Assembly: GCF_004138485.1 (NCBI RefSeq)
Contig: NZ_RYEV01000008.1
Coordinates: 124,001-188,000, forward strand
Reading direction: 5' to 3'
Origin: Peristeroidobacter soli
Lineage (GTDB): Bacteria; Pseudomonadota; Gammaproteobacteria; Steroidobacterales; Steroidobacteraceae
Length of the DNA: 64,000 nt
Within the stretch, counting starts at the first letter, position 1. The number at the start of each line of letters is the position of its first letter. Under the pieces are notes generated by a model. That model had not been told where the DNA came from. It was given only the letters and a program-made list of their open reading frames with translations, and made no database searches. This document shows, in pieces, positions 21,908-63,274 of this stretch. The position numbers and the translations under genes were made by a program.

Positions 21908-22489
21908 ATGGGCTGGATCGTTTTCATCGTCATCGTCCTGATCGCGATTTTTTTCATTTCCATCTACAACAAGCTGGTCGGTGGCCGGAACGCCTATAAG
22001 AACGCGTTCGCCCAGATCGACGTGCAGCTCACGCGGCGTCACGATCTGATTCCGAACCTGGTGGAAACCGCGAAGGGCTACATGAAGCACGAGCGCGAGA
22101 CGCTCGAAGCGGTCATCACTGCGCGCAACGCCGCGGTCACCGGTTTGAAGAATGCCTCGGCGAATCCGGGCGACCCCAGCGCCGTCCAGCAATTGTCGGG
22201 TGCTGAGAATGCGCTGAATGGCGCGCTCGGCCGACTGTTCGCGCTGGCCGAGGCCTATCCGGATCTCAAGGCCAATCAGAACATGATGCAGGTGTCGGAA
22301 GAGCTGACCTCGACCGAAAACAAAGTCGCGTTCGCGCGCCAGGCGTTCAACGATGCCGTCATGACTTATAACAATGCTCGCGAGATGTTCCCCAACAGCA
22401 TCGTCGCCAACATGTTCTCGTTCCTGCCGGCGCAGTTGCTGGAGATCGAGTCGGCCGAGAAGCGCGCGGTGCCGGTGGTGAAGTTCTAA
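21908..22489 (+). CDS. LemA family protein
   Basis: IFFISIYNKLVGGRNAYKNAFAQIDVQLTRRHDLIPNLVETAKGYMKHE. Confidence 0.93.
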   Translation: MGWIVFIVIVLIAIFFISIYNKLVGGRNAYKNAFAQIDVQLTRRHDLIPNLVETAKGYMKHERETLEAVITARNAAVTGLKNASANPGDPSAVQQLSGAENALNGALGRLFALAEAYPDLKANQNMMQVSEELTSTENKVAFARQAFNDAVMTYNNAREMFPNSIVANMFSFLPAQLLEIESAEKRAVPVVKF

Positions 22490-22513: not shown

Positions 22514-24433
22514 ATGAACTTCTTCGAGCGACAGGAAGCGTCGCGACGGATGTCGCGCTGGCTCATCGTGCTGTTTGCCGCCGCGGTGCTGTCCGTGGTC
22601 GTGGCGGTGAACCTCGTCGTGTCCTTCCTGATCTCACGAGGCCAGGAGAACATGACCGGCTACGCGCCGACTCTGGGCGAATGGATGAGCGCCAATCCGG
22701 GCACGCTATTGATCACGACCCTGGTGGTCGTGGGCATCATCGGGCTGGCGAGTCTTTATAAGACGGTGGTGCTGGGCGGCGGCGGCGGTGTGGTCGCTAA
22801 ATCGCTCGGCGGCGTGCGCGTGTCGCCGGACACCACCGATCCACAGCAACGCCGGCTGCTCAACGTCGTCGAAGAAATGGCGATTGCTTCGGGCGTGCCC
22901 ATGCCCGAGGTGTATCTGCTCGAGCATGAGATGGGCATCAATGCGTTCGCCGCCGGTCACAATCCCGCGAACGCGGCGATCGGTGTCACGCGCGGCACGT
23001 TGACGACCTTGAATCGCACCGAGCTGCAAGGCGTGATCGCGCACGAGTTCAGTCATATCTTGAATGGCGACATGCGCCTGAACATTCGGCTGATGGGGCT
23101 GCTGTTCGGTTTGCTGGCGATTGCCATGATCGGGCGCATCGTGCTCCGGTTCAGTTCCGGGGGGCGCGATTCCAAGAAGGCGTTTCCGGTGCTGCTGGTC
23201 GCGCTGGCGGTGCTGATCATCGGCTACATCGGCTTGTTCTTCGGTCGGTTGATTCAGGCGGCGGTGTCTCGCAGCCGTGAGTCGCTGGCCGACGCGTCGG
23301 CGGTGCAGTTCACTCGCGATCCCGTCGGCCTGCGCGGCGCGTTGCTGAAAATCGGTGCGCTGTCGGGCGGTTCCAAGATCGGCAATCCCGAAGTCGAAGA
23401 AGTCGCGCACATGCTGTTCGCGCCGGGCATGAGCCGGTTCTTCGCCACGCATCCGTCGTTGGAATCCCGTCTGAAGGCGATCGACCCGAGCTTTACTTCC
23501 AAAGACTTCGACCGTGCCCGCGCCGAGCTGATTCACGCGGCCGAGCAGGCCAAGGCGGATGCGACGCCGAAACAAACGTCGGCCGAGCGGTTGGAATCGC
23601 TGATCGACGTGCCGGGCGCGGCAGCGGTCGCGGGGCTCGTGGCCAATCCCGGCACCGTTCATATGCAGCTCGCGCGGGACATTCGCAAGTCGTTGCCGGA
23701 AGCCATCGTCCTCGCCGGCGCTCATCCTGATTCGGCGCGGGTGCTATTGCTGACGTTGGCGCTCGATACCAATCCCGAAGTGCGCGAGCGGCAGCAGCAG
23801 TTCATCGCTGCCCAGATTGATCCGCGGACGGCGGAGCACGTCGGACAATTGTTGGACGTCGTCGATGGGCTCGAGCCCGAACAGCGCATGCCGGCCTTGT
23901 TGCGCGCGATTCCTGCGCTCCGGCAGCTGACGCGCGACGAGCGTATGAAGTTGATGTCCACGCTGAATGGCATGCTCCAGCGCGAAGGCCGGGTCTCGTT
24001 GCAGAGCTACGTGCTTCGCAAGCTGGCGCAGGTTCATCTGAACGATGACCTGAATCCGGTCGCCCGGACCCGGCAGCTGCCGTTAAACGTCGTGCAGAAG
24101 GACATTCAGGTGCTGTTCTCGGTGTTGGCTCAGCATGGGCACGCCGACCTGGCGGACGCTCGACGAGCCTACGAGGCTGGCGTGCACCACCTGCTGCCCC
24201 GGGAGCGGCCGTCGTTCGTCAATCTGGCGCATTGGGCTCAGCCGCTGGACGTGGCGCTGAGCCGGCTCGATCAGCTGGCTCCCATCATGAAGGAGCAACT
24301 GGTCGAGGCTCTGGTCAAGACCGTGACCCACGATCAAAAACTCACCCTCGGCGAGGCCGAGCTGCTGCGCGCCGTCTGCGCGACCGTCCACTGCCCGTTG
24401 CCACCCCTGGTAACGTCTGGAACAGACGGCTAG
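22514..24433 (+). CDS. M48-family membrane metalloprotease with long C-terminal extension
   Basis: VIAHEFSHILNGDMRLN; SRSRESLADASAVQFTRDP; LemA operon partner. Confidence 0.9.
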   Translation: MNFFERQEASRRMSRWLIVLFAAAVLSVVVAVNLVVSFLISRGQENMTGYAPTLGEWMSANPGTLLITTLVVVGIIGLASLYKTVVLGGGGGVVAKSLGGVRVSPDTTDPQQRRLLNVVEEMAIASGVPMPEVYLLEHEMGINAFAAGHNPANAAIGVTRGTLTTLNRTELQGVIAHEFSHILNGDMRLNIRLMGLLFGLLAIAMIGRIVLRFSSGGRDSKKAFPVLLVALAVLIIGYIGLFFGRLIQAAVSRSRESLADASAVQFTRDPVGLRGALLKIGALSGGSKIGNPEVEEVAHMLFAPGMSRFFATHPSLESRLKAIDPSFTSKDFDRARAELIHAAEQAKADATPKQTSAERLESLIDVPGAAAVAGLVANPGTVHMQLARDIRKSLPEAIVLAGAHPDSARVLLLTLALDTNPEVRERQQQFIAAQIDPRTAEHVGQLLDVVDGLEPEQRMPALLRAIPALRQLTRDERMKLMSTLNGMLQREGRVSLQSYVLRKLAQVHLNDDLNPVARTRQLPLNVVQKDIQVLFSVLAQHGHADLADARRAYEAGVHHLLPRERPSFVNLAHWAQPLDVALSRLDQLAPIMKEQLVEALVKTVTHDQKLTLGEAELLRAVCATVHCPLPPLVTSGTDG

Positions 24434-24448: not shown

Positions 24449-24540
24449 GGGTACATGGATGTACCCCGCCGCTTGCGGCGGCGAGAGGTAAAAGTCACGC
24501 CTTTTGGCGACTCGCAGGAGGGTTGTGGCAGGGATGCCCG
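24449..24540 (+). repeat. Multi-hairpin intergenic element, copy 1
   Basis: GGGTAC-ATGGAT-GTACCC; CCGCCGC-tt-GCGGCGG; AAAAGTCACGCCTTTT; GGCA-GGGA-TGCC; homologous in order to 61363-61462. Confidence 0.75.
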
Positions 24541-24711: not shown

Positions 24712-27700
24712 ATGTCCCAGTCCATCGTCATTCGTGGCGCGCGCCAGAACAATCTCAAGAACCTGCACCTCGAGTTGCCCACCGGCGAGCTGATCGTCGT
24801 TACCGGCGTGTCCGGATCGGGCAAGTCCTCGCTGGTGTTCGACACGCTGTACGCCGAAGGGCAGCGCCGCTACGTCGAGACCTTCTCGCCGTACGCGCGC
24901 CAGTTCCTGGATCGCATGGACCGGCCGCAGGTCGAGCGCATCGACGGCATTCCGCCCGCCATCGCCATCGATCAGACCAATCCGGTGCGGACCTCGCGCT
25001 CCACCGTGGGCACGATGACCGAGCTCAACGATCACTTGAAGCTGCTGTTCTCGCGGGCCGCGCAGGTGTACTGCCGTCAGTGCTCGGCGCCGGTGAAGCG
25101 CGATTCCGCGCAGAGCATTTATGCAGAGTTGAGCGAACGTTTGCAGGCGTTGGGTCGCAGCGACGCGCGCGTCATCGTCACGTTCCCCGTGCCGGTGCCG
25201 GCGAATTTCGGCGAGGCTGAAGTGCTGAGCCTGCTGGAAAAGCAGGGCTACACGCGGCTGTTCCAGCGAATCACGTCCACGGTGGCCGCGACCGAGCCCG
25301 CCAAGGGCAAGAAGAAGGCTGCGAAGAAGGGGCGCAAGAACGCCGAGGAAGCATCTCAGACCAGCGTCGTCCTCGAAATGATTCAGGACCGTTTCCGTTT
25401 CGACAACACCGATCGCGAACGCGTGATCGAAGCGCTCGAGTCCGCGCTGCGCGTCGGCCGGGATCGGGTGGCGATTCACGTGCTCGAAGCGAATGGCGGT
25501 GGTCGCAGCGCCGAGAATGACGTCACTCCTCCGGCGACATCGGCAACCTGGCGCTTCTCATCGGATCTGCACTGCGCCGACTGTGACATCCATTATCGCG
25601 AGCCCACGCCCAGCCTGTTCTCGTTCAACTCGCCGCTCGGGGCATGCGACGCGTGCCGGGGTTTCGGGCGCATCATCGGTATCGACTTCGGTCGCATCAT
25701 TCCCGATCAAAGCAAGACGTTGAAGGGCGGCGCGGTCCGTCCGTGGCAGACCGAGTCGTATCGCGAGTGCCAGGACGATCTGATCAAGTACGCGCGCAAG
25801 AGAAACATTCCCATCGACGTGCCGTGGCGCGAGCTGACCGAGGAGCAGCGTCAGTGGGTGCTCGAAGGCGAAGGCAGCTGGGAAGACAAGCTGTGGTACG
25901 GCGTGCGCCGCTTCTTCGCCTGGCTCGAAACGAAATCCTACAAGATGCATGTTCGCGTCCTGTTGTCGAAGTATCGCGCGTACACGCCATGCACGGTGTG
26001 CGATGGCGCGCGACTCAAGACCGACGCGTTGCTGTGGCGTCTCGGCACCAAGGCGGACGCGAAAGCGGTGCTGCCCGACGCCCTGCGCTTCAAGCCGAAC
26101 GGCGTGCAATGGAACGACGCGCAGCTGGCGGAATTGCCGGGCATCGGCATTCACGAGCTGATGCTGTTGCCCATCGATCGGTGCAAACAGTTTTTCGATC
26201 GCCTGGCGCTGCCGGCGCCGCTGGATGAAGCGAGCGATCTGGTTCTGCGCGAGATCCGCGGCCGTTTCGGTTATCTGCTCGACGTGGGCCTGGGCTATCT
26301 CACGCTCGATCGCCAGTCGCGCACGCTGTCCGGCGGCGAGGTACAGCGAATCAATCTCACGACGGCGCTCGGTACGTCGCTGGTCAATACCTTGTTCGTG
26401 CTGGATGAGCCGTCGATCGGCTTGCATCCGCGCGACATGGGGCGCGTGATCAATGTGATGCATCGACTGAAGGCCGCGGGCAATTCACTGGTCGTGGTCG
26501 AGCATGATCCCCAAGTGATGCAGGCCGCCGACAAGTTGATCGACGTCGGTCCGGGTCCCGGCGAGAAGGGCGGCGAAATCGTGTTCTTTGGTGAGCCCGC
26601 CGAGCTGGCGAAGGCGGAGCGTTCGCTCACGGCGGATTATCTGCTGGGTCGCAAGCAGGTCAGCGAAGTATTGCCGGATGCCGCTCAGTCGGCGCCGACC
26701 GCGGCGCTGACAGTGAAGGGCGCGCGCCAGCACAATCTCAAGGGCATCGACGTCTCCATTCCGTTGCAGCGCCTGGTGTGTGTCACGGGCGTGTCGGGCT
26801 CGGGCAAGTCGACGTTGATTCAAGACGTGCTGTATCCGGCACTGCTCAAGCACTTCGGCAAGCCGACCGAAGCGCCGGGTGAGCACGACTCGATCAAGGG
26901 CGCTGAAAACATCAGCGCGGTCGTGATGGTCGATCAGACATCGATCGGTCGCACCACCCGTTCCAATCCGGCGAGCTATGTCGGCGCGTTCGACGCGATC
27001 CGCAAGTTGTTCGCCAACGAGCCGCTGGCGAAAGAGCGCGACTACACGATCGGCACGTTCAGTTTCAATTCCGGCAACGGTCGCTGCCCGACCTGCGGCG
27101 GCAATGGTTTCGAACACGTCGAGATGCAATTCCTGTCCGACGTGTATCTGCGTTGCGCAGACTGTAACGGCCGCCGCTATCGCGGCGAAATTCTCGAGAT
27201 CAAATTGAATCGCGGCCCCGGCCCGGGCCGTAGCATCGCCGACGTGCTCGACATGACGGTGTCGGAAGCGGTCGAGTTCTTCGCCGGCGAGCGCGAAGTG
27301 CTGTCGACATTGCGTCCGCTCGCCGAAGTGGGTCTCGACTATCTGCGACTCGGTCAGCCGGTACCGACGCTGTCGGGTGGCGAAGCACAGCGGTTGAAGC
27401 TCGCGGGTCACCTGGCGGAAAGCGCAACGGCGCGCTCGGATGACGACGCCACGCCGGGCAAGTTGTTTCTATTCGACGAGCCCACCACGGGCTTGCACTT
27501 CGACGACATCGCCAAGCTGCTGCGCGCGTTCCGTCGTTTGATCGCGGCCGGGCATTCGTTGCTGGTCATCGAGCACAATCTCGACGTCATCGCTGCGTCC
27601 GATTGGCTCATCGATCTCGGTCCGGAAGGGGGCGAGGCGGGCGGAGAAATCATCGCGGTCGGTACGCCGGCGGACCTGATGAAGGTGCCGGGCTCGCACA

Positions 27701-30507
27701 CGGGCAAGGCGCTGCGTGAAGTCCAGAGCGGCTGGAAGATCGCCGATCAGCGCACGGTCGTGCCATTGGCGGCTTCGGCGCATCGGCCGAAATCGAATGT
27801 CATCAGCATCCACGGCGCTCGCGAGCACAATCTCAAGAACGTCGATGTCGAGCTGCCGCGCGACAAGTTCATTGTGGTCACCGGCGTGTCGGGCTCGGGC
27901 AAGTCGACGCTGGCGTTCGATATCGTGTTCGGCGAAGGACAGCGCCGCTATCTCGAATCGCTCAACGCGTACGCACGGCAGTTCGTGCAGCCGGCATCGC
28001 GCCCCGATGTCGATGCGATCTTCGGCATTCCGCCGACGGTTGCCATCGAACAGCGCACCAGCCGCGGCGGTCGCAAGAGCACCGTGGCGACGCTGACGGA
28101 GATTTATCACTTCCTGCGCTTGCTGTACGTGAAGCTGGGCACTCAGTACTGCCCGGATTGTGACGTGCCCATCGAGCCGCAGAGCTTCGAATCCATCTTC
28201 GCCCGTATCAGTCGCGACTATCGCGGCAAGAGCGTGAGCTTGCTGGCGCCGCTGGTCGTGGCACGCAAAGGTTTCTACACCGACCTCGCGGCGTGGGCCT
28301 TGAAGAAAGGTTATGAGCAACTGCGCGTCGATGGCGAGCTGCTGCCGACGCAGAGCTGGCCGCGTCTGTCTCGTTTCCAGGAACATACGATCGAGTTGCC
28401 GGTTGCGACCGTTCAGGTTTCCGCGCGTAACGAGCGCGAGCTGCGTGAAGCACTGACGACGGCGCTCGACTTCGGCAAGGGCGTCGTTCATCTGCTCGAT
28501 GAAAGCGTGAAAGTGAAGAAGGCTCCGGTGGCCAAGAAGGCTGCGAAAGGCAGCACGGCCATCGCTGCGAACGCCGGCCTGTCGATCTTCTCGACTCGCC
28601 GCGCTTGTCCGTCCTGCGCCAAGAGCTTCGCCGAGCTCGATCCGCGTCTGTTCTCGTTCAACTCCAAGCATGGCTGGTGCGAAGACTGTTACGGCACCGG
28701 CTTGCAGATTCGCGGCTTCGACGAGGAGCAGAGCGGCGAGGAGATCTGGTGGAACGAATGGTTCGAGCAGGAAGCCGAAGTTTGTGACACTTGCGAGGGC
28801 GAGCGCCTCAATCCGATCGCCCGCAACGTGCGCTTCCGCGATCAGTCGATCGCGGCGGTGACGGCGCAGTCGGTCGGCGACATGCGCAAGCAGTTCAACA
28901 CGTTGAAGCTGAAAGGCCGCGAGGGTGAGATTGCGCGCGACGTGCTGACCGAAATTCACTCGCGTCTGGCATTTCTCGAAGACGTGGGGCTGGGTTATCT
29001 CGCATTGGATCGCTCGGCGCCGACCTTGTCGGGCGGCGAAGCGCAGCGCATTCGCTTGGCCGCGCAGCTCGGCTCGAATCTGCAGGGCGTGTGTTACATC
29101 CTCGACGAGCCGACCATCGGCCTGCATCCGCGCGACAACCGCATTCTGCTGGACACGCTCGACAAGCTGGCCGCGAAGGGCAATTCGCTGCTCGTGGTCG
29201 AGCATGACGAAGAGACGATTCGTCGCGCCGACTACGTGCTCGATCTCGGTCCCGGCGCGGGTACGCGCGGCGGTCGTGTGGTTGCGGCGGGCACAGCGGA
29301 AGAACTGGAGCGCTCACCTGAATCGATCACGGGTCGATTGCTCGCCCAGCCGCTACAGCATCCGATCGGCAACCGTCGTGCGGTGACACCGAAGTCGCCG
29401 GCGCTGGTCGTGAAAGACGCATCGCTGCACAACTTGCGTAAACAAACCTGCAAGGTGCCGTTGGATCGGCTGGTCGTTGTCACGGGCGTGTCAGGTTCGG
29501 GCAAGTCGACCATGGCGCGCGATGTGCTTCATGACAACTTGCGAGCGGCGCTGGGTCGTCGCAGGGGTGCGAAACTCGAGTGGCGTGGCTGTAAAGAGAT
29601 CGCCGGTTGGGAACAGATCGAGCGCATTCTCGAAGTGGATCAGACACCGATCGGCAAGACGCCACGCTCGTGCCCGGCGACTTATATCGGTTTCTGGGAC
29701 GCCATTCGTAAAGTGTTCGCCGAGACGCCGGAGGCGCGCATGCGCGGTTACACGCCGTCGCGGTTCTCATTCAACACGGCCGGCGGTCGTTGCGAGGCCT
29801 GCGAAGGGCAGGGCATGCGCAAGATCGAGATGAGCTTCCTGCCGGACGTGCGCGTGTCTTGCGACAGCTGCGGCGGTCGCCGCTTCAATCAGGACACGCT
29901 CAGCGTGCAATACAAAGGCAAGAGCATCGGCGATGTGTTGATGATGAGCATCGACGAAGCGGTCGACTTCTTCACCGCGCATCCGCGCATTCATCATTGT
30001 CTGCGCTTGCTCCAGGACGTGGGCCTCGGCTATCTCACATTGGGACAGCAGAGCCCGACGCTCTCCGGCGGCGAGGCCCAGCGCATCAAGCTGGTGACGG
30101 AACTATCTAAAGTCAGGGAATCCCGGAGGCTCCGCACGCCGGAGCCGGGCGAGGTGGTGGAGAAGCTGCCGGGCACGCTGTATGTGCTCGACGAACCCAC
30201 GGTCGGTCTGCATATGGCCGACGTCGAGAAGCTGATTCGAGTGTTGCATCGACTGGTCGACGCCGGTAACACCGTGGTCGTCATCGAGCATGATCTCGAC
30301 GTGATTGCCGAGGCGGACTGGATCATCGATCTCGGTCCCGAGGGCGGCGCCGAAGGTGGCAAAGTCGTCGTGCAGGCTTCGCCGGATGACATATTGCGCT
30401 CGGCTCGCGAATCTCACACCGCGCGCATCCTGAAGGAGTTTCTGCGTGATCGCGCGCAGGCGACTGGCGCCAAGCCCGCAGTGGAGCGTCGACGCACGGC
30501 TTGCTAG
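24712..30507 (+). CDS. uvrA: Excinuclease ABC subunit UvrA, tandem-fused double-length form
   Basis: Four [10 protein letters not shown] Walker A motifs (about 24805, 26785, 27880, 29480); four zinc-finger CxxC regions; repeated LSGGEAQRI signatures. Confidence 0.95.
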
Positions 30508-50946: not shown

Positions 50947-51423
50947 ATGAACAAGCTGGTCGCCCGTTGCTTGCTGATTCTCGCGCTGGCCGTCGGCATC
51001 AACGGCTGTAGCGCCCTGCGCCCCGACCTGAAGGCACCGCGGCTCGCGCTGATCGCCGTGGCGATGACCTCGGGCGACGTTTTCAATCAGCAGTTCCTGA
51101 TCCGTATGAACGTCGAGAACCCGAACGATCGCGACCTGCCGATCAAGGGCCTGGACTACAAGGTGTTCCTGGAAGGCGACGGTTTTGCCGAGGGCAAGTT
51201 GAACAAGCCGTTCGTGATACCGGCCAACGGCGAGATCGACTTCGACATGACGGTGAAGACCAACTTCGTCAGCGGCGTCGGCCGCCTGCTGTCCCGGCTG
51301 AACGGTCGCACTCAGGTGAATTACTCGATCGAGGGCGATCTGCTGACCGACATCCGGTTCCTGAAGAAGATTCCGTTCGAGGAGACCGGCAGCGTCAATC
51401 TGGCGACCATGCGCCCGAACTAG
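50947..51423 (+). CDS. LEA14-like (LEA type 2) lipoprotein
   Basis: Lipobox GINGC; MNVENPNDRDLPIKGLDYKVFLEGDGFAEG. Confidence 0.8.
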   Translation: MNKLVARCLLILALAVGINGCSALRPDLKAPRLALIAVAMTSGDVFNQQFLIRMNVENPNDRDLPIKGLDYKVFLEGDGFAEGKLNKPFVIPANGEIDFDMTVKTNFVSGVGRLLSRLNGRTQVNYSIEGDLLTDIRFLKKIPFEETGSVNLATMRPN

Positions 51424-51709
51424 GGCCTGTTAACACTCATTGGATGGGCTGCGACGAGCTATTGCGGTTCAGGGCTAGGCGCGACGACCGCCGTGTACTC
51501 TCCGTACATAAGGGAGGAGTAACGACGGCCTGAACCGCAATAGCTCGTCCCATCTAAGGATATTTATTCATTAAATGGGTTGCGCCTCGAATCGCCCACA
51601 GCTGCGTTACAAAGCTTGCCCATATCGACATATGGGCTGCGCTTTGTGCCTTGCTGCAGGCGATTGGAGGCGCAACGCAGCCCATCCAATGAGTGTTAAC
51701 AGGCCCTAG
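51420..51709. mobile_element. MITE-like nested palindrome (282 bp, 51424-51705) flanked by CTAG direct repeats
   Basis: Perfect 35-nt terminal inverted repeat 51419-51453/51676-51710; internal 20-bp inverted repeat 51454-51473/51529-51548; internal hairpin 51580-51675. Confidence 0.8.
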
Positions 51710-57081: not shown

Positions 57082-58176
57082 GTGGCGGATTTCGTGAATC
57101 GCAATAGCATCGTGGCGGTGGCGCTGGCCGTAGTGCTCGGCGCTGGCGCTTGGTATTACTTCGGACGCTCCGACTCCGGCTCGGGCCAGGCTCCCGGCGG
57201 CCGGCCGGCCGGTGCGCGTGAAGTGCCGGTTATGACGGCTCAACCCAAGCTCAAGGACTTCGCGCTCGAAGTCGAAGCGCTCGGTACCGTGCGTGCCAAG
57301 GAATCGGTCGACATCACCGCCAAGATCGCCGACCGCGTCACCGCGATCCGCTTCGAGGAAGGCAAGCAAGTCAGCAAGGGCGACGTGCTGGTCGAGCTCG
57401 ACAATGCCGAAGCGCTCGCCGATCTCGCCGCCGCCGAAGCCGCCGAGCGCGACAGCCGCAGCCAGTTCAAGCGCAGTCAGGAGCTGTTCCAGACCAAGGC
57501 TCTGTCCGAGGCGCAGCTCGATCAGCTCGAAGCCACCATGCTGTCGAATCAAGCCAAAGTGGCCGCGGCCCGCTCGCGCGTCAAGGATCGCCTCATCACC
57601 GCGCCGTTCAACGGTCGCGTCGGTCTGCGCAATGTGAGTCTGGGTGGATTGGTGAGCCCCGGCGGCGTCATCACCACGCTCGACGATCTGAGCATCGTGA
57701 AGCTCGATTTCGCCGTGCCCGAGTTGTTTCTTTCCAGCCTGAAGCCCGGCCTGACCGTCGAGGCGCAGAGCAACGCCTATCCGAACACGACCTTCAAAGG
57801 ACGCGTCGACAGCGTCGATACGCGCGTCGATCCCACCACGCGCGCTGTCGTCGTGCGCGCGCTGATCGACAACCGCGACGGCCGGCTGCGGCCCGGCATG
57901 TTCATGACGCTTCGTCTGGTGCGTTCCGAAGGCAAGGCGCTGATGCTGCCCGAAACGGCCATCGTGCCCGAGGACAGCAAGCACTTCGTCTTCATCGTCG
58001 CGGACGGCCGCGCTCAACAACGTGAAGTCACGATTGGCCGGCGCCGTCCGGGCGAAGTCGAGATCCTCAAGGGTGTGACCGACCAGGACATGGTGGTCAT
58101 CGACGGCACCTTGAACGTGCACAATGGCACGCCGGTGGTGTCGCGCTCCGAAGCTCAGCCTCAGGCCGCGTCATGA
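57082..58176 (+). CDS. RND efflux periplasmic adaptor subunit (GTG start)
   Basis: HlyD-like: EALGTVRAKESVDITAKIADRVTAIRFEEGKQVSKGDVLVELDN; APFNGRVGLRNVSLGGLVSPG. Confidence 0.92.
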   Translation: MADFVNRNSIVAVALAVVLGAGAWYYFGRSDSGSGQAPGGRPAGAREVPVMTAQPKLKDFALEVEALGTVRAKESVDITAKIADRVTAIRFEEGKQVSKGDVLVELDNAEALADLAAAEAAERDSRSQFKRSQELFQTKALSEAQLDQLEATMLSNQAKVAAARSRVKDRLITAPFNGRVGLRNVSLGGLVSPGGVITTLDDLSIVKLDFAVPELFLSSLKPGLTVEAQSNAYPNTTFKGRVDSVDTRVDPTTRAVVVRALIDNRDGRLRPGMFMTLRLVRSEGKALMLPETAIVPEDSKHFVFIVADGRAQQREVTIGRRRPGEVEILKGVTDQDMVVIDGTLNVHNGTPVVSRSEAQPQAAS

Positions 58177-61100
58177 TCCTTTCGGAAATCTCGGTTCGCC
58201 GCCCCGTATTCGCGATGGTGGTGAGCCTGTTGCTGACCATCATCGGCCTGATGGCGCTGAGCCGGCTCACGGTGCGTGAGACGCCGAACGTGCAGCCGCC
58301 GGTCGTCAGTATCGACACGGTGTATCGAGGCGCTTCGGCCGCGGTCATCGAATCGAAGATCACCCAGATGATCGAGAACCAGATCGCCGGCCTGGAAGGG
58401 GTCGAGACGCTGCGTTCCTCGAGCTTCGACGAGCGCTCGCGCATCACCATCGAGTTCGCGCTGGATCGCGACATCGAATCGGCGGCGAACGACGTGCGCG
58501 ATCGCGTCTCACGCGTCGTACAGCAGTTGCCCCAGGAGGCCGATCAGCCACAGGTCTCGAAGGTCGATACGTCCTCGGAGCCGGTGATGTGGCTGGCATT
58601 GACCAGCCTCTCGCGCACGCAACTGGAATTGACCGATTACGCCGATCGTTATCTGGTGGATCGGATGTCCGTGGTGCCGGGTGTTGCGTCCATTCGTATC
58701 GGCGGCGAGCGTCGCTACGCGATGCGGGTGTGGCTGGATCGCAAAGCGCTGGCCGCGCGTCAGATGACCGTACAGGACATCGAAGATTCGTTGCGACAGG
58801 AGAACGTCGAGCTGCCGGCGGGTCGTATCGAATCGCTGGAACGCGAATTCACGTTGCGTACCGACACCGGCTTCCGCACGCCGGAGGATTTTCGTCAGCT
58901 CGTGGTCGGTCGCGGCGGCGACGGCTATCTGGTGCGGCTCGGTGAGGTCGCGAACGTCGAAGTTGCAGCGGAAGACCTGCGTTCGATCGCGCGCACCGAT
59001 GGCAAGCCGGGCGTGAGCCTCGGCATCGTTCCTCAATCCACCGCCAACGTGCTCGATGTTTCCAAGGGCGTGTACGCGGAAATGGCCGAGGTGCAGAAGA
59101 CGCTGCCGAGCGATCTGAAGCTCGATATCAGCATCGACGACTCGATCTTCGTCAGCAAATCGATCTACGAAGTGGAGCACGCGCTGGTTACGGCGCTGTT
59201 GCTGGTGCTGGTCGTGATCTATCTATTCCTCGGCACGTTGCGCGCCACCATCATTCCGGTGGTGACGATTCCGGTGTCCATCATCGCCGCGTGTATCGTC
59301 ATGGCGATCGCCGGCTTCTCGGTCAACGTGCTGACGCTGCTCGGCGCGGTGCTCGCTATCGGTCTGGTGGTCGACGACGCCATCGTCGTGCTCGAGAACA
59401 TCGTGCGCCGGATGGAGCTGGGCGAGGCGCCGTTGCTCGCGGCTGTGGACGGCAGTCGTGAGATCGGCTTCGCGGTCATTGCCACCACGCTGGTGCTGAT
59501 GGCGGTGTTCCTGCCGATCTCGTTCATTCCCGGCAACGTCGGCCGGTTGTTCGGCGAGTTCGGCATCACCATCGCGGCGGCCATCGGCATCTCGGCGCTG
59601 GTGTCGCTGACCCTGGTGCCGATGCTGAGCTCGAAGATTTTCGCCAAGGGCATCGTGCGTGGCCGGGTGGCGCATGCCGTCGACCGGTTCTTCCAGTGGC
59701 TGTCGAGGGTGTACGAGATCACGTTGCGTCGAGCGCTGGCGGCACCGCTGGTGGTGGTCGTGGCGGGCGCGCTCGCCTTCGGTCTCGCGTTTGTCTTGTT
59801 CAAGGATCTGCCATCCGAATACACGCCTAGCGAAGATCGTCAGCGCGTGTTCATCCGGCTCACGGCGCCTGAAGGCGCGAGTCTGCAGTATCTCGATCGT
59901 TACCTGCGTCAGGTGGAAGAGGTGGTGCTGGAGGAAGTGGAGCGCGGCAACGTGCGTCGCTTCAACTCTCGCGCCCCGAGCTTCGGTGGCGGCACCGACA
60001 TGAACTCGGGCTTCGTGTCCTTGAACCTCAGTGAATGGGGCGAGCGCGAGGAGTCGGCGCAGCAGATCGCCGCTCGCATGCGCAAGCGGTTGTCCAACCT
60101 GATCGGTGTGCGCGTCAACGTCGGCATGCCCGGTGGATTGGGCATTCGCGGCTCAGGCATTCCTGTGCAAGTGGTGCTCGGCGGCAGCGATTACGAGGAG
60201 CTGGCCAAGTGGCGCGACACCATTCTCGCCAAGGCTTCCGAGAATCCCGGCCTCACCAACCTCGATTCGGATTTCTACGCGCGCAAGCCGCAGATTCGCG
60301 TGATGGTCGATCGCAATCGCGCCGGCGACCTCGGCGTGTCGCTGAACGCGGTGGGCCGAACGTTGGAAACGATGATGGGCTCGCGCATCGTCACGACGTA
60401 TCTGGATCGTGGCGAACAGTACAACGTGATCCTGCAGGCCAAGGATACGGACCGCGCGACGACCAGCGATCTCAACAACATCTACGTGCGCTCGGCAACG
60501 ACACGCCAGCTGGTGCCGCTGTCGAATCTCGTGACCATCGAAGAGACGGCCGGCCCGACCGAGTTGAAGCGCTTCGATCGACTGCGCTCGATCACGATCT
60601 CCGCCAACCTCACGCCGGGCTACTCGTTGGGCGAGGCGCTCGACTACATGGAGAGCCTGATTCGCACCGAGCTGCCGGCGCACGCGGTGATCAATTACGA
60701 CGGCGAGTCGCGCGAGTTCAAACGCTCGGGCGATGCGTTGTATGTGACGTTCATGCTGGCGCTGCTGATCGTGTTCCTGGTGCTGGCCGCGCAGTTCGAA
60801 AGCTTCCGCCACCCGCTGATCATCATGATGACCGTGCCGCTCGCTGTGGCGGGCGCGTTGCTGGGCCTATGGTTTACGGATCGATCCATCAACGTGTACA
60901 GCCAGATCGGCTGCATCATGCTCATCGGACTCGCGGCCAAGAACGGCATCTTGATCGTGGAGTTCGCCAACCAGCTGCGCGACCGCGGTGTGGACTTCCT
61001 CGACTCCATCATCGAATCGTCGGCGATCCGGTTGCGCCCGGTGCTGATGACCAGCCTGTGTACCGTGTTCGGCGCGGTGCCGCTGTTGATCGCATCCGGT

Positions 61101-61316
61101 GCCGGCGCGGAAAGCCGCAGCACCATCGGTTCAGTGATCGTCTACGGCGTGACGTTCTCGTTGTTGTTGACGCTGTACGTGGTGCCGGTCGTCTACGCGT
61201 TCGTCGCCCGAAACACGAAGTCCCCGGAGTACATCAGCCACATGATCGAGAAGTTGCGCGCCACGACGGGGTCAAAGCCCGCTACGCCTCCGCCAACGGA
61301 ATCAAACGTAACTTAG
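58173..61316 (+). CDS. RND efflux permease (AcrB/HAE1 type)
   Basis: ILSEISVRRPVFAMVVSLLLTIIGL; GAVLAIGLVVDDAIVVLENIVRRME; 4-bp overlap with the adaptor gene. Confidence 0.95.
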   Translation: MILSEISVRRPVFAMVVSLLLTIIGLMALSRLTVRETPNVQPPVVSIDTVYRGASAAVIESKITQMIENQIAGLEGVETLRSSSFDERSRITIEFALDRDIESAANDVRDRVSRVVQQLPQEADQPQVSKVDTSSEPVMWLALTSLSRTQLELTDYADRYLVDRMSVVPGVASIRIGGERRYAMRVWLDRKALAARQMTVQDIEDSLRQENVELPAGRIESLEREFTLRTDTGFRTPEDFRQLVVGRGGDGYLVRLGEVANVEVAAEDLRSIARTDGKPGVSLGIVPQSTANVLDVSKGVYAEMAEVQKTLPSDLKLDISIDDSIFVSKSIYEVEHALVTALLLVLVVIYLFLGTLRATIIPVVTIPVSIIAACIVMAIAGFSVNVLTLLGAVLAIGLVVDDAIVVLENIVRRMELGEAPLLAAVDGSREIGFAVIATTLVLMAVFLPISFIPGNVGRLFGEFGITIAAAIGISALVSLTLVPMLSSKIFAKGIVRGRVAHAVDRFFQWLSRVYEITLRRALAAPLVVVVAGALAFGLAFVLFKDLPSEYTPSEDRQRVFIRLTAPEGASLQYLDRYLRQVEEVVLEEVERGNVRRFNSRAPSFGGGTDMNSGFVSLNLSEWGEREESAQQIAARMRKRLSNLIGVRVNVGMPGGLGIRGSGIPVQVVLGGSDYEELAKWRDTILAKASENPGLTNLDSDFYARKPQIRVMVDRNRAGDLGVSLNAVGRTLETMMGSRIVTTYLDRGEQYNVILQAKDTDRATTSDLNNIYVRSATTRQLVPLSNLVTIEETAGPTELKRFDRLRSITISANLTPGYSLGEALDYMESLIRTELPAHAVINYDGESREFKRSGDALYVTFMLALLIVFLVLAAQFESFRHPLIIMMTVPLAVAGALLGLWFTDRSINVYSQIGCIMLIGLAAKNGILIVEFANQLRDRGVDFLDSIIESSAIRLRPVLMTSLCTVFGAVPLLIASGAGAESRSTIGSVIVYGVTFSLLLTLYVVPVVYAFVARNTKSPEYISHMIEKLRATTGSKPATPPPTESNVT

Positions 61317-61362
61317 TACAACCCGCCAAGGAATGAAGTGAACGCGGCGGTAACCCGCCTCA

Positions 61363-61462
61363 GGCACAGGGATGTGCCCGCCGCCGTCTGGCGGCGGCGA
61401 GCGGCAAAAAGTCACGCCTTTTTGCCAGTCTCGCGCGACGGCTCGTGGCAGGGACTGCCCGA
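61363..61462 (+). repeat. Multi-hairpin intergenic element, copy 2
   Basis: GGCAC-AGGGAT-GTGCC; GCCGCCGtctgGCGGCGGC; GGCAAAAAG-tcacgc-CTTTTTGCC; GGCAG-GGA-CTGCC. Confidence 0.75.
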
Positions 61463-61777
61463 TGCCTAGCCCGAAAAGAAGAGCCGGTAGGCTGCAACAC
61501 ATACCGGCTCGGTGTCCCAGAGCGGCTCACAACCACTCTCGCAGGAGGACGGTATATGAGACCACGGCAGATACCCCGCGTTCCCTAAATATTTTGTAAT
61601 TCGGAAATACATTTTTGGAATGGAAGTCGCACCGTTCCGACCCTGTCTTGTCGCATTAATTAGGAAAATTAACCGATCGGTTGGGGCCCATCGGCGCCGG
61701 CCGCAGGGCGGGCATTGCTAGAATGCCGGCTTTGGCCGGTTGGCCCCGTCGGGGCCGCCTGAAACTCGGATCGCGCC

Positions 61778-63274
61778 ATGGCTTTGACGCCCTATCAACA
61801 ACTCGAACAGGAATTCCGGCGCCTGCACGCCTTTCGCAGCGCTGCCAGCCTGTTGCGCTGGGATTCCGCCGTAATGATGCCTCGGGGCAGCTCCGAGCTG
61901 CGGGGCGAACAGCTCGCCGTGCTGGAGACCGAGAGTCACTCGCTGGTGAGCTCGCCGCGGGTCTCCCGGCTGCTCGATCGCGCGGAGGCCAACCTGCAGG
62001 GGCTGGAGGATTGGCAACAAGCCAACCTCAAGGAAATGCGCAGGGAGCGCGACCACGCCATCGCCACTCCGCAGAACCTGGTGTCGCGGCTTGCTAAAGC
62101 GACGGCGCGGGCCGAGATCAAATGGATCGAGGCCCGGCAGAAGAGCGACTTCTCCTTGTTCGCGCCGCATCTGGAAGAAGTGGCGGCCCTGGTGCGGAAC
62201 AAGGCCGACCTGCTCGGCAAGGCGCTCAAGCTCGATCCCTACGACGCCTTGCTGGATGAATTCAGCCCGGGCATGACCGCGGCCGAGATCGACGGCATCT
62301 TTACGACGCTGGGCCGACGTCTGCCGGGCCTGATCCAGGAAGCCATCGACACCCAGGCCAAACATGCGCCGCTGGAAATCACCGGGCGGTTCTCGGCCAG
62401 CAAGCAGCGGCACCTGGCGACCGAGCTGATGAAGACCATGGGCTTCCCGTTCGATCGCGGCCGGCTCGATGAAAGCGAGCATCCGTTCACCGGCGGCATT
62501 CCCGGCGACATCCGTATCACGACCCGTTTCAATCCCGCCGATCCGCTGACCGGGTTGATGGGCGTGCTGCACGAGACCGGTCACGCCATGTACGACGTCG
62601 GTCTGCCGGAACAGTGGCGCGGCCAGCCGGTGGGGCGCGATCGCGGCATGGCCATGCAGGAGAGTCAGTCGCTGCTGCTGGAGATGCTCATCTGCAGGAA
62701 CCGGCCGTTCCTGCGTTATATGAAGCCGCTGATGGAAAAGGCCTTCGGGGTCGCAGGTCCCGAGTGGGAAGTCGAGAATCTGTATCGGCTGTTGACGCGC
62801 GTTCGTCGCAGCCTGATTCGCGTCGATGCCGACGAGGTCACCTATCTGGTGCACATCCTGCTGCGCTATGAGTTGGAGCAGGAGATCCTGAAGGGCGAGT
62901 TGAAGATTCGCGATCTGCCCGAAGCCTGGAACACCCGCATGGGCGACCGGCTCGGCGTGCAGCCCGCGAACGACGCCGAAGGCTGTCTGCAGGACGTGCA
63001 TTGGGCGGTGGGTTCGTTTGGATATTTCCCCTCGTACGCCATCGGCGCCGTGATCGCCGGCCAGCTGTATGAGAGCCTGCGCTCCGATCGGCCGCAGCTC
63101 GATGAGGAAATCGCCGCGGGCCAATTCGGGGGATTGTTCGACTGGTTGCGGCAGAATGTGCATGCGCTGGCCGCGAGCGTCAGCACTCCCGAGCTGATTC
63201 GCAACGCCACCGGCAAGCCGCTGTCCGCCGCCTCCTGGCTGCGCTATATCGAAGGCAAGTACCTGGAACTCTGA
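61778..63274 (+). CDS. M32 family carboxypeptidase (thermostable carboxypeptidase 1 type)
   Basis: [62 protein letters not shown]. Confidence 0.95.

What the first reader, a model, noticed from the sequence alone, without database searches (positions are those of the whole stretch)
61363..61462. GGA-loop hairpins in the dispersed element match the CsrA/RsmA high-affinity consensus
The CsrA SELEX consensus is RUACARGGAUGU with GGA in a hairpin loop. Copy 2 contains GCACAGGGAUGU and copy 1 contains GUACAUGGAUGU, each 11 of 12 matches with GGA in a hexaloop on a perfect stem. Each copy has a second GGA-loop hairpin (GGCAGGGACTGCC, GGCAGGGATGCC). Hypothesis: mobile 3'UTR elements act as CsrA/RsmA binding platforms or sponges for the LemA/M48 and RND-pump transcripts.
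Basis: partly seen in the sequence, partly recalled or inferred. Interest (0 to 1): 0.7.

Follow-up and report, generated by a model that had tools for sequence, protein, structure and literature searches.

The report
Mobile DNA repeats carrying CsrA-type hairpins
The two hairpin clusters belong to a large family of small mobile DNA repeats, found in over 20 genera of Gammaproteobacteria, that keep two near-perfect docking sites for the RNA-binding regulator CsrA while the rest of their sequence changes; this suggests, but does not prove, that jumping elements spread CsrA sites around bacterial genomes.

Summary
Both window copies carry the stated 11/12 CsrA-consensus hairpin plus a second GGA hairpin. 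They are 2 of 49 copies in this Steroidobacter-type genome of a ~114-nt four-hairpin element (HP1-HP4). The same module occurs in 28 of 369 sampled gammaproteobacterial genomes. Outside Steroidobacter many copies are clean MITEs: 149-154 bp, inverted ends GGAAGCTCTGAA, exact 4-bp YTAR-type target duplications (45/63 identical; 9 expected), as for IS5.

Across 183 distinct copies the HP1 loop reads A-C-A-N-G-G-A-N-G-U, with freedom at the two N positions: the published CsrA/RsmE motif. Stems covary strongly. Stem mismatches are G·U rather than A·C on the GGA strand (51 vs 16), so that strand is the structured one. Orthologous copies change at N (7/26) but rarely at A/GGA (1/52).

Orientation to neighbouring genes is random (37 sense, 47 antisense), and GGA is kept equally in antisense and divergent copies. 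RAYT/Y1 transposases are absent from element-rich genomes. Binding and transcription were not testable.

Verdict: very probably genuine CsrA-type sites, carried by a mobile repeat and kept by selection on the element, not LemA/M48- or RND-specific 3'UTR platforms. No published description was found.

The parts
61357..61475 (+). Element copy 2 (the finding), between an RND pump gene and an M32 carboxypeptidase gene
   Evidence: CM match, 93.3 bits; four-hairpin MFE; the same copy sits at the orthologous site in four related genomes
61363..61378 (+). HP1 of copy 2: GGCACAGGGATGTGCC, GGA in the loop, 11/12 of the SELEX consensus
61379..61396 (+). HP2 of copy 2: GC-rich stem, no GGA
61397..61434 (+). 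HP3 of copy 2: GGCAAAAAGTCACGCCTTTTTGCC hairpin with conserved loop, no GGA
61435..61470 (+). HP4 of copy 2; inner hairpin GGCAGGGACTGCC at 61447-61459 with GGA triloop
24444..24554 (+). Element copy 1, between an M48 peptidase gene and a UvrA-like gene
   Evidence: CM match, 106.3 bits; covariation of the family
24449..24466 (+). HP1 of copy 1: GGGTACATGGATGTACCC
   Evidence: not in the MFE of this copy alone
24527..24538 (+). HP4 apex of copy 1: GGCAGGGATGCC
21908..22489 (+). LemA family gene upstream of copy 1
   Evidence: Pfam PF04011, E 3.9e-56
22514..24433 (+). Peptidase M48 gene, ends 10 nt before copy 1
   Evidence: Pfam PF01435; spacing
24712..30507 (+). UvrA-like gene downstream of copy 1
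   Evidence: Pfam UvrA_inter and ABC_tran
58173..61316 (+). RND efflux pump gene (AcrB family), ends 40 nt before copy 2
   Evidence: Pfam PF00873; spacing
61778..63274 (+). Carboxypeptidase Taq (M32) gene downstream of copy 2
   Evidence: Pfam PF02074

Best explanation
The feature is a copy of a small non-autonomous mobile element whose body is a chain of hairpins. On one strand it displays two CsrA/RsmA recognition sites: HP1 (ACANGGANGU) and HP4 (mostly CAGGAUG). Shown: the family, its structure, the motif, its mobility (MITE ends and target duplications in the wider family), and constraint on the GGA loops at orthologous sites. Inferred: when the GGA strand is transcribed, by read-through from a neighbouring gene or by an unknown promoter, the RNA binds a CsrA dimer at HP1 and HP4. 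It would then titrate CsrA and tie the carrying transcript to CsrA, for example through its stability. Selection appears to act on the element itself or on the pooled dose of copies, because GGA is kept whichever way a copy faces its neighbours.
For: HP1 across 183 distinct copies with a hexaloop: A161 C176 A176 N(T62 G85 A20 C16) G177 G177 A177 N(T137 C26 A12 G8) G177 U165, which is the published 5'-A/UCANGGANGU/A-3' (PMC6849547) and close to the SELEX consensus. HP4 apex is mostly CA(GGA)TG. GGA is unpaired with probability 0.79-0.98 in HP1/HP4 against 0.23-0.40 for other GGAs. Covariation: 555 double-change cells against 124 in shuffles, and 35 against 8. G·U 51 against A·C 16 in stems, p 2e-5. 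Orthologous loops: N sites 7/26 changed, A/G/G/A 1/52, p 0.0015. MITE ends with exact 4-bp duplications 45/63, 9 expected. Element in 28/369 genomes and 22/271 genera, a lower bound. CsrA in all 27 near-complete sampled genomes with the element, against 253/287 without.
Against: No binding, transcription or phenotype data. No promoter or terminator conserved with the element was noticed. About half the copies face away from the neighbouring gene. Two draft genomes with the element show no CsrA (completeness unknown). CsrA is near-universal anyway, so co-occurrence is weak evidence. No TIRs or target duplications were found around Steroidobacter copies. HP3 has an equally conserved loop that CsrA does not explain. 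Copy 1 alone does not fold with HP1.
Confidence: 0.6

Rival explanations
1. The loops are conserved for DNA-level reasons: single-stranded or cruciform hairpins recognised during transposition or replication, with the CsrA match coincidental.
For: The elements are mobile; conservation does not depend on orientation to genes; HP3 also has a conserved loop without GGA; a strand-specific DNA hairpin could also prefer G·T over A·C.
Against: Ends and target duplications are those of cut-and-paste IS5-type elements, which read terminal repeats, not internal loops (own knowledge); free and fixed loop positions coincide with the CsrA motif; loops are kept in orthologous Steroidobacter copies that have no detectable terminal repeats.
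Confidence: 0.2
2. One reading: 3'UTR platforms that place the upstream gene (LemA/M48, RND pump) under CsrA control.
For: Both window copies follow and are co-oriented with the upstream gene; the RND copy is kept at the orthologous site in five genomes with GGA intact in both HP1 and HP4.
Against: Over 145 copies with a resolved context, tandem contexts split 37 sense to 47 antisense (p 0.33), and GGA retention is the same with a co-oriented (73/78 HP1) or opposed (61/67) left-hand gene. Placement near stop codons fits insertion into YTAR sites, which contain TAA/TAG.
Confidence: 0.12
3. REP/RAYT-type palindromes with no CsrA connection.
For: Small, intergenic, palindromic, many copies.
Against: No Y1 transposase (PF01797) in G000, G001, G003, G008, G010 or G011, the element-rich genomes of the genus. 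Copies elsewhere have DDE-type terminal repeats and target duplications.
Confidence: 0.03
4. Structural 3' elements (terminator or RNA stabiliser) where only the stems matter.
For: Copies lie near stop codons and convergent exceed divergent contexts 41 to 20; stems are strong.
Against: Loops are at least as conserved as the stems and follow the CsrA motif; no T-run after HP4 in the copies read.
Confidence: 0.1

Closest known systems
CsrB/CsrC and RsmX/Y/Z/V/W sRNAs (Rfam clan CL00106)
   Same: Several GGA-loop hairpins presenting ACANGGANGU/CAGGAUG sites; weak sub-threshold matches to RsmW (L309, 32.5 bits; threshold 52) and RsmV (HP1 only)
   Different: Only two GGA sites, dispersed in tens of mobile copies, no own promoter or terminator seen, below the Rfam thresholds
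TD-2 RNA (RF03162, Treponema by own knowledge; clan CL00124)
   Same: Two AnGGAU hairpin loops flanking another helix; one gammaproteobacterial copy aligns over the full model (34.5 bits, threshold 48.7)
   Different: Below threshold, one copy only, no HP3-like hairpin; not shown to be related by descent
TwoAYGGAY (RF01731) and Bacillaceae-1 candidate CsrA sRNAs
   Same: Structured RNAs with two GGA loops predicted from the motif to bind CsrA (PMC4333381)
   Different: Described there in Clostridia and Bacilli; no Rfam match to our copies
IS5-type MITEs
   Same: 149-154 bp, terminal inverted repeats, 4-bp YTAR target duplications (the IS5 motif is stated in PMC10359306)
   Different: Carry a conserved, covarying multi-hairpin module with two CsrA sites; partner transposase not identified
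REP / BIME elements with RAYT
   Same: Short intergenic palindromic repeats near gene ends
   Different: No Y1 transposase in element-rich genomes; loop motifs conserved; DDE-type ends elsewhere

Membership tests
MITE of IS5 type | Terminal inverted repeats | tested here: met
   Both ends matching GGAAGCTCTGAA at 9/12 or better in 63 of 100 non-Steroidobacter copies. Not seen around the Steroidobacter (window) copies.
MITE of IS5 type | 4-bp target duplication of the form YTAR | tested here: met
   45/63 identical 4-mers, 9.1 expected by re-pairing; none extends to 5 bp; YTAR on about 45 of 63 ends. Not met for Steroidobacter copies.
MITE of IS5 type | Partner transposase with the same ends in the genome | not tested
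CsrB/RsmZ-type sRNA | Multiple GGA motifs in hairpin loops matching the CsrA consensus | tested here: met
CsrB/RsmZ-type sRNA | Match to a known Rfam family of the clan | tested here: not met
   No match at gathering threshold; best RsmW 32.5 of 52 bits
CsrB/RsmZ-type sRNA | Own promoter and Rho-independent terminator; stand-alone transcript | tested here: inconclusive
   Flanks beyond the element ends differ between copies; no transcript data
CsrB/RsmZ-type sRNA | Binds and titrates CsrA | not testable with these tools
   Needs a bench assay
TD-2 RNA (RF03162) | Score above the curated threshold | tested here: not met
   34.5 against 48.7 bits
REP with RAYT | Y1 (RAYT) transposase in the genome | tested here: not met
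   0 matches in the six element-rich Steroidobacter-group genomes

The most novel reading that the evidence does not exclude
A widespread class of selfish mini-transposons has evolved to exploit, or to be tolerated through, the global regulator CsrA. Each copy is a mobile two-site CsrA decoy, so element copy number sets free CsrA and transposition rewires which transcripts fall under CsrA control.
Probability: 0.35. Interest if true: 0.92.

Novelty: new variant of a known kind. Interest (0 to 1): 0.75.

Why it matters
CsrA is a master post-transcriptional regulator whose activity is known to be set mainly by a few dedicated sponge sRNAs. A mobile element that seeds tens of high-quality CsrA sites per genome would be a new route by which transposition alters global regulation. 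It would also add a large, easily recognised family to the catalogue of CsrA ligands, with about 190 natural variants that read like a SELEX experiment.

Tried and rejected
REP/RAYT origin: no Y1 transposase in element-rich genomes. Known Rfam family: none at threshold. Published description: none of six signature sequences occurs in any held paper, and paper searches on CsrA with repeats found only the unrelated TAACTGA repeats of Beggiatoaceae, whose authors judged CsrA unlikely. Plasmid and phage carriage: no hits. Target duplications around Steroidobacter copies: no offset pair stands out among many tested. Sense-orientation enrichment: absent. A first G·U/A·C count with fixed seven-pair windows ran past the stem ends and gave no signal in Steroidobacter; it was replaced by one limited to core pairs and placed by Watson-Crick pairs only. 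The pattern count SNNNACANGGATGTNNNS was set aside because several hits are not palindromic and look like coding sequence. Two viral contigs sharing the TIR do not carry the module.

Full report
WHAT WAS CHECKED. The stated motifs are at the stated places. GCACAGGGATGT (61364-61375) and GTACATGGATGT (24451-24462) are the only two matches to RTACARGGATGT with at most one mismatch in the window; 0.32 are expected. With two mismatches allowed there is no excess (6 against 5.1), so motif matching alone is thin evidence. The second GGA hairpins are also present. Copy 2 folds as four hairpins with both GGAs in loops (z -3.6). Copy 1 taken alone prefers a competing pairing of HP1.

THE ELEMENT. A BLAST search of the own genome found about 30 diverged copies. 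A covariance model (R1) built from 23 of them found 49 in 9.37 Mb. The anatomy is HP1 (GGGTACANGGATGTACCC), HP2 (GC-rich), HP3 (GCGAG..GGCAAAAGTCACGCCTTTTGCC..CTCGC) and HP4 (ACGAGGGTCGTGGCAGGATGCCCGATCCCGAGT). In the 23-copy alignment 15 of 32 pairs show changes on both sides; 35 such cells are seen, 7.7 expected in shuffles, with sliding controls clearly lower.

WHERE IT OCCURS. Named matches include Steroidobacter agaridevorans, S. gossypii and Peristeroidobacter agariperforans; contig lengths identify G001 and G011 with the first and last. An exact scan for the HP3 core then hit Halothiobacillus and other gammaproteobacterial drafts with the same four-hairpin order but unrelated stems. A wider model (R2) found the module in 28 of 369 gammaproteobacterial genomes, 22 of 271 genera. 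That is a lower bound, since only ten candidates per genome were scored. One draft genome holds 127 copies, some in tandem. Their consensus is TTCAGAGnTTCCTGCGGCACAGGGATGTGCCGCC-(HP2)-GGAAAGCGAAAATCACATTTTTCGCTTTCC-GTGCTCTGAGAATTCCAGGATGGAATTATTCAGAGCTTCC. On 104 distinct aligned rows, 555 cells show double changes against 124 in shuffles.

IT IS A MOBILE ELEMENT. In non-Steroidobacter genomes the left flank is an inverted copy of the right end. Of 63 copies with both ends, 45 are flanked by identical 4-mers (9 expected on re-pairing), none extending to 5 bp, and mostly YTAR. YTAR is the IS5 target motif (PMC10359306). Unit length is 149-154 bp. YTAR contains TAA/TAG, which can explain why copies abut stop codons in either orientation (median 6 nt for antisense copies). 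Steroidobacter copies, the window's included, show neither terminal repeats nor duplications. They may be older or have moved differently.

THE CsrA SIGNATURE. Aligned by their stems only, 183 distinct HP1 hexaloops give A161 C176 A176 N G177 G177 A177 N G177 U165. The first N is T62 G85 A20 C16 and the second T137 C26 A12 G8. The two free positions are the two Ns of the published motif A/UCANGGANGU/A (PMC6849547). HP4 apices are mostly CA(GGA)TG, which from my own knowledge is the CsrB repeat. GGA in HP1 and HP4 is predicted open (0.79-0.98) while other GGAs are mostly paired.

WHICH STRAND, AND IS IT SELECTED. In stems located by Watson-Crick pairs only, G·U (51) exceeds A·C (16), p 2e-5. 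Counting each genome, pair and type once gives 46 against 16, p 2e-4. So the GGA strand is the one whose folding matters; this fits RNA, though a strand-specific DNA hairpin is not excluded. In 13 orthologous groups between related species, the two N sites changed in 7 of 26 group-sites and the loop A, G, G, A in 1 of 52 (p 0.0015; the groups were read by eye, the test is). This points to constraint after insertion, although gene conversion between copies cannot be excluded.

WHY NOT A 3'UTR PLATFORM. Genes were called with a home-made codon model. Over 149 copies the contexts are 37 sense-tandem, 47 antisense-tandem, 41 convergent and 20 divergent (4 unresolved). HP1 GGA passes a strict test in 73/78 copies whose left-hand gene is co-oriented and in 61/67 whose left-hand gene is opposed; HP4 in 67/78 and 60/67. 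Several of the HP1 'failures' still contain GGA. Retention therefore does not depend on being in a neighbour's sense transcript.

CsrA PRESENCE. The genome has one csrA, with a sequence very like that of E. coli (comparison from memory). CsrA is present in 35 of 37 element-bearing genomes. In the class sample all 27 near-complete element genomes have it, against 253 of 287 others (p 0.04). This is consistent but weak.

CONCLUSION. The better frame is a dispersed, mobile hairpin element that carries two CsrA sites. I am confident it is a structured, mobile family (about 0.95 for the wider family). I think it likely that the loops are CsrA sites (about 0.75). I am unsure what they do: titration, transcript tagging, or a benefit to the element. 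No description was found in Rfam 15 or in the held papers; subscription papers and ISfinder were not searchable.

Noticed in passing
window 51420-51709: A separate ~290-bp MITE: inverted ends GGCCTGTTAACACTCATTGGATGGGCTGCG flanked by CTAG on both sides (YTAR-type duplication). Both flanking genes end in the duplicated CTAG (stops at 51423 on + and 51706 on -).
   Followed up: partly
window 61474-61600 (- strand): Candidate small RNA on the minus strand: a terminator-like hairpin (GAGCCGGTA...TACCGGCTC then TTCTTTT) preceded by a conserved CGTCCTCCTGCGAG (anti-Shine-Dalgarno-like) stretch and an AT-rich promoter-like block. The hairpin and CCTCCTGCGAG are kept in relatives that lack the element; no Rfam match.
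   Followed up: partly
HP3 of all copies (window 61397-61434): HP3 has an equally conserved loop, YCRCR between AAA and TTT (each C in about 110 of 125 copies), with no GGA and no known reader.
   Followed up: no
L004, L012, L019, L021, L026 near 1500-1750: Composite copies in this genome: HP4 is replaced or split by a second unit that, where read through, has its own CATGGATG and GCAGGGACTGC hairpins.
   Followed up: no
L187, L188, L189, L193, L199, L205 and others around the exact 20-mer: Steroidobacteraceae and other drafts carry a different dispersed hairpin pair, CCGGCAAAAGTCACGCCTTTTGCCGG ... GAAAAAGCGCCGCAGGCGACTTTTTC, that shares HP3 but has no GGA hairpins.
   Followed up: no
L443 1002-1160: A viral contig carries the same terminal repeat GGAAGCTCTGAATAAGTC in a MITE-like unit with different contents.
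   Followed up: no
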